DNA from: Pedobacter steynii
GTDB taxonomy: Bacteria > Bacteroidota > Bacteroidia > Sphingobacteriales > Sphingobacteriaceae
Assembly: GCF_001721645.1 (NCBI RefSeq)
Contig: NZ_CP017141.1
Coordinates: 4,960,001 to 5,024,000 of the forward strand
Reading direction: 5' to 3'
DNA length: 64,000 nt
The notes under the pieces were generated by a model. The model ran no database searches. It saw only the letters and a list, made by a program, of their open reading frames with translations, and was not told the origin of the DNA. Below are positions 7,821-28,867 of this stretch, piece by piece (position 1 is the stretch's first letter; each line of letters starts with the position of its first letter). The translations under genes and the position numbers were made by a program.

Positions 7821-8849
7821 TCAGAGGCGATTTAACTGGATGGATAAAATTGTTTTATATTCCATTTCATTTTCGGTGGTTACAAACTGATAGCCGTCCT
7901 TGTACAGCAATTCAAGACGTTGACGGATGTTTCCCAGTCCGATTCCGGTGGAGCTATCTGTAAGGGACTCATCCGGTAGGGAGTTTGTAACGCATACGAC
8001 CAGCGATTCAGTGGATATTTCAATGTTGATTTTTACAGACCACTTTCTGGTAATCGTCAGGCTATGTTTAAATGCGTTTTCTATCAAAGTGATCAAAATC
8101 AACGGCGCAATCCTGAACCTGCTGAGTGCTGCCTGGTCGCTGGGAAACGAAAATGAGATTTCACAGCGCTTTCCGATGCGCTCTTTTTCCATCACAATGT
8201 AATCGGCTATAAACTGAATTTCTTCAGCAATGCTTACAAGGGGCTTATTTCCGTTTTCCAATTGATAACGCATGAGGTTGGATAGCTTTAAAATTAGTTG
8301 TGGGGTTCTTTCAGGGGCCGTCAGACTGACGCCATACAGATTATTGAACATATTGAAGAAAAAGTGCGGGTTTAGCTGCGCATGCAAAAACTTAATGTTC
8401 ATCTCGCTCATCATCAGCTGGTCCTGACTACGTTGCTTGAGCTCAATAGCAAACTGACGGATCAGAAAAAGGGACATGATGGTGATGGTACTGATCAGGC
8501 AAATGACAAAATGGTATAGGATCCAGAACCAAATGCTTCCGCGGTGATAAAAATCCGGCTCGATCAGGTAATAATTCAACGTGTATAATAGTGTCGCTCC
8601 TGCCAGGGTGGAAAGAATGGTGACTACTGCATAGGAGCTGAAACGCTTTTGAAGGTACAGCGGAAATACAAAGTAGCGATGTACCTTAGCTTGCAAATAA
8701 AGCACCAGAAAAAACGCCAGTCCTTTAATGAAGCCGGCAAGGGTATCGATCTGAATCCATTCATGCAACATCGTAAGAATGAACATCGCAATAAAGAACC
8801 CGGCTTCCTGTATATACCTGCTTTGGTACCATTTTCGTTTCTCTGCCAT
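7821..8849 (-). CDS. Sensor histidine kinase of the LytS/YehU (His_kinase, PF06580) type
   Basis: This 342-residue protein starts with about four predicted membrane helices (residues about 15-130) and no large extracellular sensor domain. A helical linker leads to the His_kinase motif AQLNPHFFFNMFNNL with phospho-His H162. A HATPase domain follows (LIENAFKHSL as N-box, GIGLGNIRQRL as G-box). Such kinases pair with LytTR regulators, and this gene directly precedes one with a 1-bp gap. It likely senses a membrane or envelope signal. Confidence 0.93.
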   Translation of the reverse strand: MAEKRKWYQSRYIQEAGFFIAMFILTMLHEWIQIDTLAGFIKGLAFFLVLYLQAKVHRYFVFPLYLQKRFSSYAVVTILSTLAGATLLYTLNYYLIEPDFYHRGSIWFWILYHFVICLISTITIMSLFLIRQFAIELKQRSQDQLMMSEMNIKFLHAQLNPHFFFNMFNNLYGVSLTAPERTPQLILKLSNLMRYQLENGNKPLVSIAEEIQFIADYIVMEKERIGKRCEISFSFPSDQAALSRFRIAPLILITLIENAFKHSLTITRKWSVKINIEISTESLVVCVTNSLPDESLTDSSTGIGLGNIRQRLELLYKDGYQFVTTENEMEYKTILSIQLNRL

Positions 8850-8903
8850 GGCTAATCATTTTGTTGTGTGACAATGATCCGTTTTTTTTTCTAACGATCC
8901 AAG

Positions 8904-8955
8904 AATACATGACCAACGTTGTTCATCATGTAAATGGCCGGCTTGGTCATGTATT
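8904..8955. promoter_or_regulatory. Inverted repeat in the divergent promoter region (candidate LytTR operator)
   Basis: AATACATGACCAA at 8904-8916 is exactly complementary to TTGGTCATGTATT at 8943-8955. Inside, ATGACCAACGTTGTTCAT (8909-8926) is itself a near palindrome centred on AACGTT. The element is the only obvious symmetry between the histidine kinase start (8849) and the receptor start (9013). It is a good candidate for binding by the adjacent regulator; that role is inferred. Confidence 0.55.
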
Positions 8956-9012
8956 TTCTTGTCAGGCGCCTTGAATGATTTTCTTTGGGCGTTTAAAACT
9001 TGAATTTCTAAT

Positions 9013-11487
9013 ATGTTAACCTATTTTTTACGCATTTGCTTTGCTGTGTTTTTTATGCTGGCCATCCATCAGCCTTTTGCTGTTGCCCAGGTTCCTGCTC
9101 AACCTGCTACAGGTAAAAAGACTTCAATCATCAGTGGATTAGTGGTCGATTCGGCAACTCACAAACCGCTGGATTTTGTCACGCTCATTCTAACGTCTGA
9201 TAAGGGGGCAGTAATTAAAACAGCTGCCAGTGCCCAAAATGGGACGTTTACTTTTGAAGTTGCAAATGGCGGCAATTACATCCTGAATGCCTCTTATATG
9301 GGCTACAGGAATTATACTTCTTCGGCAATTACTTTAAAGGGAGGGGGTACCATTGATCTCGGACGTATCGCACTGCATCAGCAGCCTGGGATGCTGTCAG
9401 AGGTAACCGTTGCCGGTAAGAAGGCTTTAATCCAGAATAAGGGAGACAAGATCATTTACAACGCTTCTTCAGACGTCAGCAATAAATCGGGATCTGCCTC
9501 AGATGTTTTTAGGAAGGCGCCTATGGTAACGGTTGATGCCGATGGCGGAATTAAAATGAGGGGCAGCTCCAATATTAAAGTATTGTTGAATGGACTTCCG
9601 TCTACTATCCTTGCGAAAAATTTAAAGGAAGCGTTAAAGACAATTCCGGCATCCTCCATTGAATCCATTGAGGTGATCACTACGCCTTCGGCTAAATATG
9701 AAGCGGAAGGCGCCGCAGGCGTGATCAATATTGTTACGAAAAAGAAGATGCAGGGAACCAGCGGGAACGTTGATATCAGTGGTGGTAATCTTGAACAGAG
9801 CGCTGCTGCGGGGTTAAATGTAGCTGCCGGGAAATTCAATTTCAATCTTTCCCTGAATTCAAACAGGGAAAGAAACCGGAGCCTCTCAGAATTGAGCAGG
9901 CAGACGATATTTGAGGGGCAGCAAATCGGTAATCTCTTTCAGCGCAATGAGTCCGTCACGCGCAGCAAAGGTGCTTACGGAAACTTTAGCACGGAGTTTC
10001 GACCTGATTCGACTCAGAAAATTGGCGCTACTGTTTCGTTATGGCATGGCAGCTGGCCGGTAGAAAGCAAGCTCTATAATCTTTACAATAGCCCTCAGGG
10101 TACCAGCGAATACAACCAAAATAGCAATCAGGATGGTAAATTTACCACTTTTGATCTTTCTCTTAATTATCAGAAAAAGTTCAGACAAGTAGGGCAGGAG
10201 CTGTCATTGATCGGTCAATACAGCCCTTCCAATGATCAGTCTGATTATCTGACCCAGCAATACCTGCCTACAGGTCAGCGCTCTTTTAGGGAGACCAGCC
10301 CCAACAGAGGTAGTGGCAACGACAAGAGTTTGCAGGCGGATTATGTACATCCCCTGGGAAACGCCGGTAAAAATATTGTTGAGACCGGTGTACGATATAG
10401 CCGTACCCAGTCAAAAAGCGCATACTCAGTTTTCAATAACCGCAACAATCCATCCTCGGTCGATCTGACCGAAGATCCCAGCCGCTCGGATACCATGAAT
10501 TACTTTCAAAATATCTTTGCCGGATATTTCAGTGTTAAGTTTGAAACCAAAAATCATTGGGCTTTCCGGTCCGGACTACGGTATGAAAGTACCAATCTGG
10601 GTGGGAGTTTCCAGGGGCCTATTCCTTCGTTTAAGGCGAAGTTCGGCAATTTTGTTCCCAGCATGCTCATCACCAAAAAGCTTGGTGAGTTCCATGAGCT
10701 GAAACTGAATTATACCGAACGTATCCGCCGCCCCTGGATCTGGGACCTGAACCCCTATGTCAATGCAAGCGATCCTAGAAACCTGACTTATGGCAATCCA
10801 AATCTAAGGCCGGAAATTACAAGGATGCTGGAAGCCGGATATGGCTATACTTCGGCCTCGGGATTCAGTCTGAACAGCAGTGTCTATTTCAATTCAAACC
10901 GCAATGCCATTGAATCCCTCAGTACACTGGACAGCCTTGGAATATCCAGGACGACTTCCCGGAATATTGCTGCAAACAGGCGTTTAGGGACCAACGTCTT
11001 TACCAGTTTACAGCTCAATCCCAATTGGTCTTTAAGCGCTGGCGCGGAATTTTATCATGTGTGGTTTGAAAGCAAGGCGTTGAATGTAAAAAATGACGCC
11101 AACTTCTACTCGTTTAACTTTAATACTGCCTATGTGTTTTCATCGGGTTATACCATTCAGGCTTCCGGCGATTACAGCAATGGATATGTTACCCTGCAGG
11201 GCAGGAGCTCGGCGAATTATACTTACCGTTTCTCTGCGCGCAAAGAGCTGCTGAATAAGAAAGCAAGTGTTACGCTCGGTATTAATAATCCATTTCAAAA
11301 CAGGTTCCTTCAAAAAAGTTTTACATCGGCTTCGACCTTCAATAGTACCAGCAACAGCTGGCATTATAACCGGTCATTCTCGCTGGCTTTGAGCTACAGG
11401 TTTGGAAGTATGCAGGCTGCTCCGGATTATTCGAAAGGCAATCATGAACAGGGGGCGCAGCCGGTCAGAAGAGGCCGCGGGAATTGA
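9013..11487 (+). CDS. Outer-membrane beta-barrel receptor (TonB-dependent-like, OMP_b-brl_3 type)
   Basis: This 824-residue protein has a signal peptide (about 1-26). A CarboxypepD-regulatory-like domain follows (about 38-120, SGLVVDSATHKPLDFVTL), then a plug-like region (about 130-220, including DVFRKAPMVTVDADGGIKMRG and EGAAGVINIVTKKK). The rest is a beta-barrel with alternating aromatic strands ending near SLALSYRFGS. There is no SusD partner. Proteins of this type are often divergent from LytTR two-component systems in Bacteroidota. The substrate is unknown; by context, expression is likely under control of the neighbouring kinase/regulator pair. Confidence 0.9.
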   Translation: MLTYFLRICFAVFFMLAIHQPFAVAQVPAQPATGKKTSIISGLVVDSATHKPLDFVTLILTSDKGAVIKTAASAQNGTFTFEVANGGNYILNASYMGYRNYTSSAITLKGGGTIDLGRIALHQQPGMLSEVTVAGKKALIQNKGDKIIYNASSDVSNKSGSASDVFRKAPMVTVDADGGIKMRGSSNIKVLLNGLPSTILAKNLKEALKTIPASSIESIEVITTPSAKYEAEGAAGVINIVTKKKMQGTSGNVDISGGNLEQSAAAGLNVAAGKFNFNLSLNSNRERNRSLSELSRQTIFEGQQIGNLFQRNESVTRSKGAYGNFSTEFRPDSTQKIGATVSLWHGSWPVESKLYNLYNSPQGTSEYNQNSNQDGKFTTFDLSLNYQKKFRQVGQELSLIGQYSPSNDQSDYLTQQYLPTGQRSFRETSPNRGSGNDKSLQADYVHPLGNAGKNIVETGVRYSRTQSKSAYSVFNNRNNPSSVDLTEDPSRSDTMNYFQNIFAGYFSVKFETKNHWAFRSGLRYESTNLGGSFQGPIPSFKAKFGNFVPSMLITKKLGEFHELKLNYTERIRRPWIWDLNPYVNASDPRNLTYGNPNLRPEITRMLEAGYGYTSASGFSLNSSVYFNSNRNAIESLSTLDSLGISRTTSRNIAANRRLGTNVFTSLQLNPNWSLSAGAEFYHVWFESKALNVKNDANFYSFNFNTAYVFSSGYTIQASGDYSNGYVTLQGRSSANYTYRFSARKELLNKKASVTLGINNPFQNRFLQKSFTSASTFNSTSNSWHYNRSFSLALSYRFGSMQAAPDYSKGNHEQGAQPVRRGRGN

Positions 11488-25948: not shown

Positions 25949-26818
25949 ATCATAAAATTAGGGATTCGTCCTCAGCTGAAAATTAAAGTAGTTTAATAAA
26001 TGAAAATTTTTAAAGTAAGAGCATGACAAGTAAATTCAGGACTGCACACAGTTTAAATGCGGAACGAATGGCCACTTTTGGCGAAATACCCATGCTGACA
26101 ACATCCGCAAAACTTATGGATTACTCTAAGCTCCAGGTTCAGCTTAATTACCTTTGCTAAGTAGAATAGGGAACTGCATTGGTAGAGTTGAGCAAAGAAT
26201 GCTTGAATAGAGATGCCATGCTGTAAAGCTGGAAGTCTGGCTTGAGAAAGTTAATATGAATTTTTTAAAGAAAACATCAAGGATCACAAGTGACGATTCA
26301 ATTCAAATTTTGTATATTTGTCTATTATAAACACAAAGTAATTAAAGATCAATTTAAAAAAGAGATCTGCTTTATATGTTTACTGTTATAAATGGCTGAT
26401 AACCAGTGTTTTACAAGAGTTATTTAAATGGTTATTTTTGGACTCTGGTTGTACCTTCATCTTCATAACTTGCTGATAATCAGTGTTGCTTACTTTCTGT
26501 ATTGGCAAGTAGCCCTGTGTAATTACGAATAATTATGTTTAATAGTGAATAGTAAGTAGCTTATTGTTAATAAGTTATGTGTATTTCTTTTGTCTAAATT
26601 CTTGGATAATTGCCATAGTTTTTCACACATTTATACCTCGAGCACAAAATTTTACCCCCAAAAAAGACAGGGTAAAACATTGCGCTTAATGTCATCTAAT
26701 TCCTCTTAATTCTCCTTAATTACCCTAAAAAGGGCTAAAAAAAGGAGAGATAACTACCGATGATTTAAGCGAGAAAAAGGTGCCAGTGGGATAATGAGAA
26801 GGAACAAAAAAGAAAACA
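25949..26818. other. AT-rich non-coding interval with degenerate coding traces
   Basis: No intact gene is supportable in these 870 bases. Around 26041-26160 a plus frame reads TAHSLNAERMATFGEIPMLT before a stop, and around 26180-26250 a frame gives ALVELSKECLNRDAML before a stop. Both look like decayed coding sequence of unknown origin. The second half is strongly AT-rich and holds a pair of near-identical 16-bp repeats. It leads into the broken HTH and integrase genes, so it is probably the edge of a degraded integrated element. Confidence 0.5.
26395..26487. repeat. Pair of 16-bp direct repeats with internal dyad symmetry
   Basis: GCTGATAACCAGTGTT (26395-26410) recurs as GCTGATAATCAGTGTT (26472-26487) with one mismatch, 77 bp apart start to start. 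The second copy contains the perfect palindrome CTGATAATCAG. They lie about 330-420 bp before the HTH pseudogene and could be regulator or recombinase arm sites of the degraded element. Confidence 0.5.
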
Positions 26819-27385
26819 ATGAGTTCAAACATCAACATCCAAAGAATATGTGAACACTGCGGAAAACCGTTTCGGGCGAAAACCACCGTAACGAGGTTCT
26901 GTAGCCCAAGATGCAATGGCAGACATGCCAAACAAAAGATCCGCGATTTAAAGATCAAAGTGTCCGATACACAGGTTAAAGAAAACCTACCTTTAGTCAT
27001 AAACCATCCGGTTTTATTGGAATTCTTAACCATTAAACAAGCTGCTTAACTTTTAGGGCTCTGCACCAAAACCGTACATAACATTCTCCAAAGTGGTAAA
27101 ATTAAAGCCGTTAGGTTCAGTGCTAGAAAAATCATCATTAAAAGAATAGAAATCGGCAAAATATTTGAACAACCCGAATTTGAAGCCCCGATAAGAGAAA
27201 AGCCTAAAAAGAACCCCCATCCAAGATATTGTTATACTATGGCGCAGGCACAGGATAGATTCAACTGTTCTGAAAAGGCTCTGTATGACCTGATCAAAAG
27301 GAATAACCTGTCCAAATTCCAAGATGGCTGGTACACCTATGTGCTGAAATCCGACCTCCACGGCATTTTTAATCAAAACCTTTAA
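26819..27385 (+). pseudogene. HTH (MerR/excisionase-like) protein with zinc-finger-like N-terminus, interrupted by one stop
   Basis: The frame starts [18 protein letters not shown] with two cysteine pairs (CEHC and CSPRC, residues about 11-29), then a linker ending [12 protein letters not shown] at codon 77 (27047-27049) falls inside the first helix-turn-helix. The same frame continues with LLGLCTKTVHNILQSGKIKA and ends with a second HTH-like unit (MAQAQDRFNCSEKALYDLIK) and a stop at 27383-27385, 188 sense positions in all. Intact relatives are common beside tyrosine recombinases of Bacteroidota integrative elements, where they act as excisionase or DNA-binding accessory proteins. A single substitution would restore the frame. 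Confidence 0.8.
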
Positions 27386-27388
27386 GCT

Positions 27389-27520
27389 ATGTCTAAAGTC
27401 ACTCTGCGCAAAAAAGCTATCACTAAAAACAGGCACAGTCTGCTTTTAGATTATTATCCGCTGCCTTATAGTTCATTTTCTTATGCTTTAAAATTGTCGC
27501 AATGGAGTCAATCGAATTAG
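27389..27520 (+). pseudogene. N-terminal fragment of a tyrosine recombinase/integrase
   Basis: The ATG at 27389 follows the HTH pseudogene by 3 bp. The first 25 residues, MSKVTLRKKAITKNRHSLLL and DYYPL, match the N-terminal arm-binding region that opens many Bacteroidota phage/transposon integrases (usually continuing NPxTGKxTRREFL). From there the sequence is unrelated and stops after 44 codons. The catalytic domain is missing. It supports the view that an integrative element once sat here. Confidence 0.65.
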
Positions 27521-27790
27521 TTTGTACAAGTGCATTTGTTGGAAGCCTTACGAATATTTATTGAAACCTTACAAATATAAAAAGAGCCTTGCATTGCCAG
27601 GCGCTTATGCCCAACTTTAAAATAATTATGGCGGTAGTGCTAGCAAATTAAATTTATACCGTGGTAGTTAGCAATTTATATTAATATTTTTTGTAGACGT
27701 ACAACTGATTTTTTATAAATAGCAATTTAACCAAAACCCAAACGCCAGGGTAAGTTGGCGCTTATCAATCAAATATTAAAACTTAACAAA

Positions 27791-28006
27791 ATGATAAATT
27801 TAAAAGGGATGCAAAAAAGCTTGTCTTCATTGGAAAACAAGAAGCTAACTTTAGAAAGTTCTAAAGCTATATTAGGTGGTTTAGCTGGGGGCCCTAAGTA
27901 TATCGTATCTAACCTTCGAGACGAAAACGGGTGTCAATTGGTCGATTACTATCATAATGGTAAATGGTGTGCTAGATTTAGCGATTGTAAGAATGAATAT
28001 TGCTAA
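27791..28006 (+). CDS. GG-leader secreted peptide (bacteriocin- or RiPP-like precursor)
   Basis: The ATG at 27791 is preferred over an upstream codon at 27755 and gives 71 residues. Residues 1-30 form a leader with hydrophobic spacing (LSSLENKKLTLESSKAILGG) ending in a double glycine, the cleavage site for C39-peptidase exporters. The 41-residue core has four cysteines (core positions 18, 30, 36, 41), several aromatics and a second GG (LAGG), which offers an alternative cleavage point. About 320 bp downstream are remains of just such a C39-peptidase ABC exporter. No maturation enzyme is visible, so an unmodified disulfide peptide is as likely as a modified one. Function (antibacterial or signalling) is inferred. 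Confidence 0.7.
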   Translation: MINLKGMQKSLSSLENKKLTLESSKAILGGLAGGPKYIVSNLRDENGCQLVDYYHNGKWCARFSDCKNEYC

Positions 28007-28106
28007 TAATCAATTCAATGTAATAAAAAATAGGTGGCATGAAGAGCTTTTCTTTTTAAAAAACGAAAAGCTTGCAGACTTAAATTTTATTAGCGGTGAA
28101 GATTGA
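27993..28106 (+). CDS. Small ORF overlapping the GG-peptide gene
   Basis: An ATG at 27993 inside the last codons of the peptide gene opens a 37-residue frame (MNIANNQFNVIKNRWHEELF, then FLKNEKLADLNFISGED). The 14-bp overlap is typical of translational coupling. After its TGA the same frame stays open for another 16 codons, so it may be the start of a longer, now truncated gene. No family is recognised. A weak hairpin (28045-28072) lies inside it. Confidence 0.35.
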   Translation: MNIANNQFNVIKNRWHEELFFLKNEKLADLNFISGED

Positions 28107-28160
28107 GCTCATCGAACTATAGTTGATTTAATTTTCCTAAATAACGTAGTTTCATGAATA

Positions 28161-28189
28161 AAAAAGCCCCACAGTGATGGGGCTTTTTA
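28161..28189. terminator. Hairpin terminator downstream of the GG-peptide gene
   Basis: AAAAAGCCCC pairs exactly with GGGGCTTTTT around an 8-nt loop (ACAGTGAT). The T-run on one strand and A-run on the other make it able to act in both directions. Confidence 0.85.
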
Positions 28190-28324
28190 AAAATCTATAA
28201 TAATTTAAAATCCAAATCAGCAAATGACATTAAACAGGACTAAAAATAGATAAGTAACTGATAATCTTTATGATGGATGCATTACTTACACATCGCAATT
28301 AGAACGTACAGCACATAACAAAAA

Positions 28325-28628
28325 ATGAAGAAGTCTAAAAATTTCCCTTTCTTTAAACAACCTGATGCCAAAGACTGTGGTCCAAGTTGCTTGCGTATTA
28401 TTGCAAAGGACTATCAAAAAAATATTAGTTTACAGCAAATCAGAACACTATCTGAAACGACGAGAGAAGGAAGTGGTTTACTGGGGCATTAGTAATGCGG
28501 CAGAACATTTAGGCTTTAAAACATTAGGCGTAAAAATAGATTTTAATACGGTAAATAAAGCGGCAGGAAAAGTTAGCTTCAAGCGCAATAAAGCCAAAAT
28601 GCTGAGGTATAATATACGCGAGCATTAA
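28325..28628 (+). pseudogene. Truncated, frameshifted C39-peptidase domain of a peptidase-containing ABC transporter
   Basis: From the ATG at 28325 the frame reads MKKSKNFPFFKQPDAKDCGP with the catalytic-Cys motif DCGPSC, then LRIIAKDYQKNISLQQIRTL. After EGSGLLG it runs into TAG (28490-28492). A one-base shift at the GGGGC near 28483-28487 restores the expected continuation ISNAAEHLGFKTLGVKIDFN, which ends at 28626-28628. The catalytic His, the membrane helices and the ATPase domain are absent. In intact form this protein cleaves GG leaders and exports the peptide. It is the degraded partner of the upstream GG-leader gene. Confidence 0.8.
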
Positions 28629-28867
28629 TTTAGATGACGGGGAATGGTCAATATGATCTGTTCCCCGTCTTTTTTTTGTTTAAATAGCACCGGAATCTCT
28701 GCCAGTGGGATAACCGGCATGGTCCTTATTATTTGTTGTTCTTTAGCCAGATGATCTTCCTTAAGCGTAGGTCCATTAAGGTGAATCCGCATCGGAACCT
28801 TAATTTGCTTTTTCGCTTCCCTGACATCAGGCTGATCGTCAAATCCGACGCTTACATCTGTTCGCAT
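28625..28867 (-). CDS. Hypothetical small protein
   Basis: This 80-residue minus-strand frame (MRTDVSVGFDDQPDVREAKK, then QIKVPMRIHLNGPTLKEDHL) has plausible amino-acid composition and no signal peptide or membrane segment. It ends overlapping the stop of the exporter remnant by 4 bp, head-on. The family is not recognised. It could itself be a fragment of a larger gene, because no promoter-like TAnnTTTG is evident upstream. Confidence 0.4.
   Translation of the reverse strand: MRTDVSVGFDDQPDVREAKKQIKVPMRIHLNGPTLKEDHLAKEQQIIRTMPVIPLAEIPVLFKQKKDGEQIILTIPRHLN

What the first reader, a model, noticed from the sequence alone, without database searches (positions are those of the whole stretch)
27755..28628. 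Orphan GG-leader cysteine peptide next to a dead C39-peptidase exporter
A 71-residue gene has a double-glycine leader (ending ILGG after 30 residues) and a 41-residue core with four cysteines. About 320 bp downstream is the N-terminal domain of a peptidase-containing ABC transporter with the DCGPSC motif, frameshifted and truncated. The two belong together by known biology of GG-leader export, yet the exporter is lost while the precursor stays intact. The peptide could now be exported by another transporter, act inside the cell, or be on its way to loss. The core sequence is not one I recognise.
Basis: partly seen in the sequence, partly recalled or inferred. Interest (0 to 1): 0.62.

Follow-up and report, generated by a model that had tools for sequence, protein, structure and literature searches.

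The report
Orphan peptide from a decayed operon
An intact gene for a small peptide of the exported kind survives in a Pedobacter genome after the enzymes and exporter that once went with it decayed, and close copies occur in several related species, so the peptide probably still does something, though its family is already known.

Summary
Window 27791-28006 encodes a 71-residue peptide with a 30-residue leader ending in Gly-Gly; a frameshifted, truncated C39-peptidase exporter start lies 318 bp downstream (28325-28565).

The peptide is not unknown. It matches TIGR04139 and PF14406 above their curated cut-offs: precursors of Bacteroidota graspetide ("grasp-with-spasm") operons. Intact Pedobacter operons read precursor(s) - ATP-grasp - small protein - SPASM protein - C39 exporter - HlyD. 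The window holds the wreck of one: intact precursor, leader remnant of a second, terminator hairpin, scraps of the ATP-grasp gene, exporter fragment. P. punctiformis has the same cassette one decay step earlier, exporter and HlyD intact.

Nine of 145 genus genomes carry this clade, eight copies intact, one frameshifted. The core is nearly invariant (dN/dS 0.09), but only two of its four cysteines are. In KBW06 a matching enzyme pair lies at another locus with no precursor found beside it. The window's genome has three divergent enzyme pairs and five full-length C39 exporters.

Best reading: a relic precursor still under selection, probably exported in trans and perhaps unmodified here. New member of a known kind; interest moderate to low.

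The parts
27509..27790 (+). 5' region (likely promoter and untranslated leader) that goes with the gene; window 27531-27790 is 82-94% identical to seven other copies
   Evidence: blastn blocks start between window 27466 and 27548 in all eight relatives; identities. No promoter motif above chance.
27791..28006 (+). Intact GG-leader precursor, 71 aa (leader 1-30, core 31-71), TIGR04139/PF14406 family
   Evidence: 8 intact copies in Pedobacter genomes
28012..28102 (+). Remnant of a second, tandem precursor gene (leader part, frameshifted, core missing)
   Evidence: blastn of window 28021-28083 to the second precursor of L028 (66 bp, 75.8%, E 5e-4); local alignments to four precursor starts, without a shuffle control; the P. 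punctiformis copy reads KKLSGMESFSF*KTKSLQ, tblastn E 0.001 in a small database
28161..28188 (+). Terminator-like hairpin between the precursors and the former enzyme genes
   Evidence: RNA fold -18.0 kcal/mol, z -5.0, 0 of 200 shuffles as good; same hairpin in P. punctiformis, z -4.84. The consensus scanner did not list it.
28225..28291 (+). Two scraps of the ATP-grasp maturase gene (its start, and a piece near codons 162-170, my estimate) with about 370 bp missing between them
   Evidence: Collinear with the decayed ATP-grasp gene of P. punctiformis (window 28258 = L029 9778, window 28269 = L029 10147); that remnant matches ATP-grasp residues 1-162 at 35% and, at L029 10081-10169, the ATP-grasp gene of L038 at 71%
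28325..28565 (+). N-terminal fragment of a C39-peptidase ABC exporter, frameshifted and truncated
   Evidence: PF03412 39.8 bits; 96% identical to the intact P. punctiformis exporter over residues 1-54 and 81% over 54-80 in another frame

Best explanation
A grasp-with-spasm (graspetide-type) operon decayed in stages and left one intact precursor gene with its 5' region and a terminator-like hairpin (shown by comparison). The core peptide is under purifying selection across the clade (shown clade-wide; inferred for this strain). Most likely the peptide is made, cut after Gly30 and exported in trans by one of the five full-length C39 exporters elsewhere in this genome, the best candidate being the one at C1:868165 in the intact grasp-with-spasm operon (inferred). 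In this strain it is probably not given its original modification, because no closely matching ATP-grasp/SPASM pair was found in the genome (absence by search, consequence inferred). The extracellular role is inferred only: a competition or signalling peptide.
For: Family match. Intact operon order in relatives, with ATP-grasp TIGR04192 and SPASM TIGR04193 above cut-off. Decay intermediate in P. punctiformis, sharing the ATP-grasp-to-exporter deletion with the window. Core dN/dS 0.09 against leader 0.37 over 8 copies. Ser40, Asn41, Asp52, Tyr54, Gly57 and Arg62 kept in 27 of 27 family members aligned. C39 domains in 9 of 9 copy-bearing genomes; five full-length ones in the own genome, that at 868165 being 71% identical to the exporter of a matching-type operon. 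Trans arrangement: KBW06 has a matching ATP-grasp/SPASM pair with no precursor found in its 19 kb stretch, and its two TIGR04139 precursors on other contigs.
Against: No expression or peptide data. Clade-wide constraint need not hold in this strain; the window copy alone has Thr20, Ile27 and His55 among the 8. One of nine copies is frameshifted. The clade is rare (9 of 145 genomes). Leader residue -7 is Ser, where a C39-leader structure has Leu, though -4 (Ile) and -12 (Leu) fit (PMC6363468, passages), so recognition is not assured. No promoter motif exceeds chance. The leader/core contrast is marginal (site test p 0.041) and one control group leans the same way.
Confidence: 0.5

Rival explanations
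1. The precursor is still modified in trans: one of the genome's three divergent grasp-with-spasm pairs installs the Ser-Asp type linkage (and perhaps a Cys-linked change), then a C39 exporter releases it.
For: 8 of 9 copy-bearing genomes have TIGR04192 and TIGR04193 above cut-off, against 29 of the other 136 genus genomes for TIGR04192 (Fisher p 7e-5, not corrected for relatedness). Candidate linking residues are invariant. In KBW06 a matching enzyme pair and the precursors sit at different loci.
Against: The three pairs of the own genome are divergent (ATP-grasp 277-305 bits, against 333-385 for ATP-grasps of the matching type) and have other leaders (MKKFEKLNSKKVES, MKTLEKLGVFN, MKKLEKLNEKKVEG); a fourth weak match is below cut-off (66 bits). 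P. punctiformis keeps precursor and exporter although neither enzyme was found in its genome.
Confidence: 0.2
2. Non-functional relic on its way to loss; intact only by chance or recent arrival.
For: What remains of the operon beside it is dead; G009 carries a frameshifted copy; the block looks transferred between the window and P. punctiformis lineages (94% against recA 80.8%); three residues are unique to the window copy.
Against: Eight of nine copies are open, and synonymous changes far exceed amino-acid changes in the core (dN/dS 0.09), while the second precursor and the enzyme remnants beside it are broken.
Confidence: 0.2
3. Unmodified, disulfide-bonded bacteriocin that works like a bacteroidetocin.
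For: GG leader, Cys-containing core of 41 residues, C39 exporter in the original cassette.
Against: Cys number varies from 2 to 4 and is three in 5 of 8 copies; no thiol oxidoreductase family among the flanking window ORFs that I scanned (not all ORFs, and no membrane-segment prediction was run); leader is 30, not 15-16, residues; core net charge about -0.2 where bacteroidetocins A/B are +2 and +6 (PMC6671954, passages).
Confidence: 0.1

Closest known systems
TIGR04139 / PF14406 precursors of grasp-with-spasm (graspetide branch 5) loci
   Same: Scores above cut-off, leader with LENKKL then GG, core SN...D.Y..G....R
   Different: No ATP-grasp or SPASM gene beside it; the stretch before GG is two residues longer than in most other members aligned; Cys spacing is not the CxxCx5CxxC of the model's name
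Intact grasp-with-spasm operon in the same genome (C1, about 865.7-871.7 kb; L044)
   Same: Same gene order and families as the operon from which the window relic derives
   Different: Precursor has another leader and core and gave no NCBIfam match; ATP-grasp and SPASM proteins are of the divergent type
Bacteroidetocins (class IIf bacteriocins)
   Same: GG leader, small Cys-containing peptide, C39-ABC exporter in the region (PMC6671954, passages)
   Different: Different family by profile; longer leader; no thiol oxidoreductase found among the flanking ORFs scanned
C39-peptidase ABC exporters (PCAT/AMS, PF03412)
   Same: The fragment keeps the DCGPSC region
   Different: Only about 80 residues remain, in two frames; no membrane or ATPase part

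Membership tests
TIGR04139 peptide family / PF14406 | Whole-protein score above curated cut-off | tested here: met
   61.7 bits vs 40; 39.2 vs 25
TIGR04139 peptide family / PF14406 | Double-glycine leader | tested here: met
   GG at 29-30, invariant in 8 of 8 intact copies
TIGR04139 peptide family / PF14406 | CxxCx5CxxC in the core (read from the model's name only; the membership rule is the score) | tested here: not met
   Spacing is C-x11-C-x5-C-x4-C and varies between copies. A precursor of an intact operon that passes the cut-off (48 bits, L035:9643-9915) has a single Cys, so the motif does not decide membership
Grasp-with-spasm biosynthetic system | ATP-grasp (TIGR04192) and SPASM (TIGR04193) genes beside the precursor | tested here: not met
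   Only scraps of the ATP-grasp gene remain by DNA alignment; tblastn with three ATP-grasp and two SPASM proteins finds none in the 64 kb. It is a precursor of that kind, not a working system of its own.
Grasp-with-spasm biosynthetic system | Ester/amide or thioether links in the peptide | not testable with these tools
   Needs mass spectrometry
C39 exporter (PCAT) | C39 domain joined to membrane and ATPase domains | tested here: not met
   Domain start only, frameshifted, similarity ends at 28565
Bacteroidetocin (class IIf) | 15-16 residue leader | tested here: not met
   30-residue leader; definition from PMC6671954, passages
Bacteroidetocin (class IIf) | Adjacent ABC/C39 gene, five-TM protein and mostly a thiol oxidoreductase | tested here: inconclusive
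   Exporter is a fragment; no thiol oxidoreductase among the flanking ORFs scanned; membrane segments were not predicted

The most novel reading that the evidence does not exclude
A clade of RiPP precursors has cut loose from its biosynthetic operon and spreads and persists as a lone unit (5' region, gene, and in some copies a terminator). Hosts supply maturation and export in trans, or use the bare core as an exported peptide, so that selection now acts mainly on the core and less on the leader.
Probability: 0.3. Interest if true: 0.55.

Novelty: new member of a known kind. Interest (0 to 1): 0.36.

Why it matters
RiPP mining usually starts from a maturase or exporter and reads the precursors beside it (general knowledge). 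Here a selected precursor clade has no maturase beside it in any of nine genomes and no exporter in seven, so such mining would miss it. The series intact operon, P. punctiformis, window, lone gene also lets one ask directly what a RiPP precursor does after its enzymes are gone.

Tried and rejected
Mobile element: plasmid, phage and viral-contig searches found no relative; ten flanking proteins of relatives gave ordinary families or none (Fic, sigma factor, release factor RF-1, beta-lactamase fold, DUFs); right-hand block ends differ between copies. No element boundary was found.

Peptide-sensing two-component system: six fetched operon loci have a sensor kinase/regulator pair divergent from the precursors, but the nearest kinase in the own genome (57% identical, C1:3613616) has no evident GG precursor among nearby ORFs of 40 aa or more, so this was not used.

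Four-cysteine disulfide motif: rejected as a defining feature because only two Cys are invariant.

Structure: AlphaFold2 on 8 sequences gave mean pLDDT 53.2; leader below 50; strands at 36-43, 49-55 and 58-65 in ten-residue blocks averaging 56-74. Too weak to use; no fold search was run.

Leader-versus-core contrast: pooled pairs are not independent; site-level Fisher p 0.041. Control groups from intact operons (leader, core): type A 0.05, 0.11; type B 0.24, 0.13; type C 0.15, not computable. Suggestive only.

Script errors: one search stopped on a fault; one search gave wrong recA identities for pairs in mixed orientation (values near 40%); one search replaced them.

Full report
What is there. 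Window 27791-28006 (+) encodes MINLKGMQKSLSSLENKKLTLESSKAILGG followed by a 41-residue core ending FSDCKNEYC. A TTG start at 27755 would add 12 residues, but the ATG form aligns with relatives. The peptide matches NCBIfam TIGR04139 (61.7 bits, cut-off 40) and Pfam PF14406 (39.2 bits, cut-off 25). A phylogenomic study of graspetides says that PF14406 came from precursors of its branch 5 ATP-grasp loci of Bacteroidota, and TIGR04139 and TIGR04149 from putative precursors next to SPASM maturases (PMC8939145, passages and part 1 of 3 of section 6). [quoted passage not shown]); I saw no characterised product of this type in what I read.

Intact operons. Among 148 relatives, 10 have TIGR04139 matches. 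I fetched 13 stretches from the nine besides the own genome plus six C39 loci of the own genome, and ten more later. In intact loci (for example L035) the order is precursor(s), ATP-grasp (TIGR04192, 340 bits), a 59-residue protein, SPASM protein (TIGR04193, 382 bits), C39-ABC exporter, HlyD. The genus is Pedobacter, judged from the titles of the named records that carry the same loci.

The decay series. P. punctiformis (L029/L047) has the same precursor (93% identical), then a decayed ATP-grasp gene (tblastn residues 1-162 of 300 at 35%), then an intact 733-residue C39 exporter and HlyD; its genome shows no TIGR04192 or TIGR04193 match at E 0.001. The window matches it at 27466-28258 (91.6%) and 28269-28550 (96.8%), lacking about 370 bp of the ATP-grasp remnant. 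In both, the remnant runs straight into the exporter with the small protein and SPASM gene gone, so they share that deletion. In the window the exporter is frameshifted and similarity stops at 28550-28565. Just after the intact precursor there is a remnant of a second precursor leader, and then a strong terminator-like hairpin at 28161-28188 (z -5.0).

The clade. A profile of six copies searched in 145 genus genomes matched 15, of which nine carry this clade: eight intact copies and one frameshifted (G009); the other six match more weakly. Exporter sequence lies next to the precursor in two of the nine (window, P. punctiformis); tblastn found none in the other seven within the flanks held, P. 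terrae having only about 0.8 kb downstream. By neighbouring ORFs (60 aa or more) there are five settings: four genomes share one, P. zeae and MAG BIN13 share three genes upstream, and P. punctiformis, KBW06 and the window share none with the rest; the window and KBW06 do share a 0.4 kb DNA piece, in opposite orientation. Identity between window and P. punctiformis is 94% in both 5' region and gene against 80.8% for recA, and between P. punctiformis and KBW06 95% and 94% against 80.4%, which points to transfer. Window and KBW06 (91.5%, 90.1%, recA 88.9%) are nearly level, and for PF22-3 and P. terrae the block (93.4%, 93.9%) is below recA (96.3%), which points to descent.

Selection. Over the 8 intact copies dN/dS is 0.09 in the core and 0.37 in the leader. 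Pairs overlap, the site test is marginal (p 0.041), and three control groups from intact operons are mixed (leader/core 0.05/0.11, 0.24/0.13, 0.15/not computable), so the contrast is a hint; the constraint on the core is the firmer part. Ser40, Asn41, Asp52, Tyr54, Gly57 and Arg62 are unchanged in 27 of 27 family members aligned, including precursors of intact operons. The graspetide study predicts that a conserved Thr/Ser and Asp/Glu pair is linked, so Ser40 and Asp52 are my candidates (inference). Cys48 and Cys66 are in 8 of 8 copies, Cys60 in 5 and Cys71 in 4.

Enzymes and exporters elsewhere. TIGR04192 is above cut-off in 8 of the 9 copy-bearing genomes and in 37 of 145 overall; Fisher p 7e-5 without correction for relatedness. 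Six of the nine (KBW06, P. suwonensis, PF22-3, G009, BIN13, P. terrae) have an ATP-grasp of the type that goes with this leader: 335 bits or more, and clustered with or at least 62% identical to that of L035. The own genome has three divergent pairs (277-305 bits) with other precursors, only one of them next to a C39 exporter, and a fourth weak match below cut-off. KBW06 has a matching-type pair (ATP-grasp 78% identical) with no leader-like small ORF found in its 19 kb stretch, and TIGR04139 precursors on two other contigs; it also has two further ATP-grasp genes. All nine genomes have at least two C39 matches. The own genome has five full-length C39 exporters, a match in a 540-residue frame, the window fragment, and one match below cut-off.

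Mechanism. Shown: origin from a decayed grasp-with-spasm operon, an intact reading frame, constraint on the core across the clade, exporters present elsewhere in the genome. Inferred: expression, cleavage after Gly30, export by another C39 protein, lack of the original modification in this strain, an extracellular role. A caution is that the leader has Ser at -7, where a C39-leader crystal structure places Leu; Ile at -4 and Leu at -12 fit (PMC6363468, passages).

Novelty. In a sample of 395 genomes of the class, TIGR04139 matched 3, two above cut-off, so the family is uncommon. My paper searches listed no report that I recognised as describing this clade; they cover only the held open library, most hits I saw as listings, and no supplements were read. 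The peptide is a new member of a known family; its conserved state without its operon is the unusual part.

Noticed in passing
L105 (KBW06, G060:C18) 8813-10988: ATP-grasp, 59-residue protein and SPASM gene of the matching type with no precursor or exporter found in the 19 kb stretch: an enzyme island that may serve precursors on other contigs.
   Followed up: partly
L031, L035, L038, L110, L111, L112: A sensor kinase/response regulator pair lies divergent from the precursors in these six operon loci, suggesting peptide-linked regulation; in L110 (G202, P. zeae) kinase, regulator and exporter are 91-96% identical to those of L035 while precursors and SPASM protein differ, so modules are swapped.
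   Followed up: partly
L044 8388-8576 and L035 10954-11133: A 59-62 residue protein without NCBIfam match sits between the ATP-grasp and SPASM genes in intact operons; it could be a partner protein.
   Followed up: no
window 26819-27385: Two same-frame ORFs (zinc-finger-like and HTH_17-like, both below cut-off) look like a broken regulator; 26491-26871 recurs inverted right beside the precursor block in KBW06 (87.5%).
   Followed up: partly
window 28625-28867: 80-residue minus-strand ORF just after the exporter fragment with no Pfam or NCBIfam match.
   Followed up: no
G000 C1:6128809-6131027 and C1:6157946-6160143 (L103, L104): Two further ATP-grasp/SPASM pairs in the own genome with GG-leader small ORFs but no C39 match beside them, so if those peptides are exported by C39 proteins it must be in trans.
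   Followed up: partly
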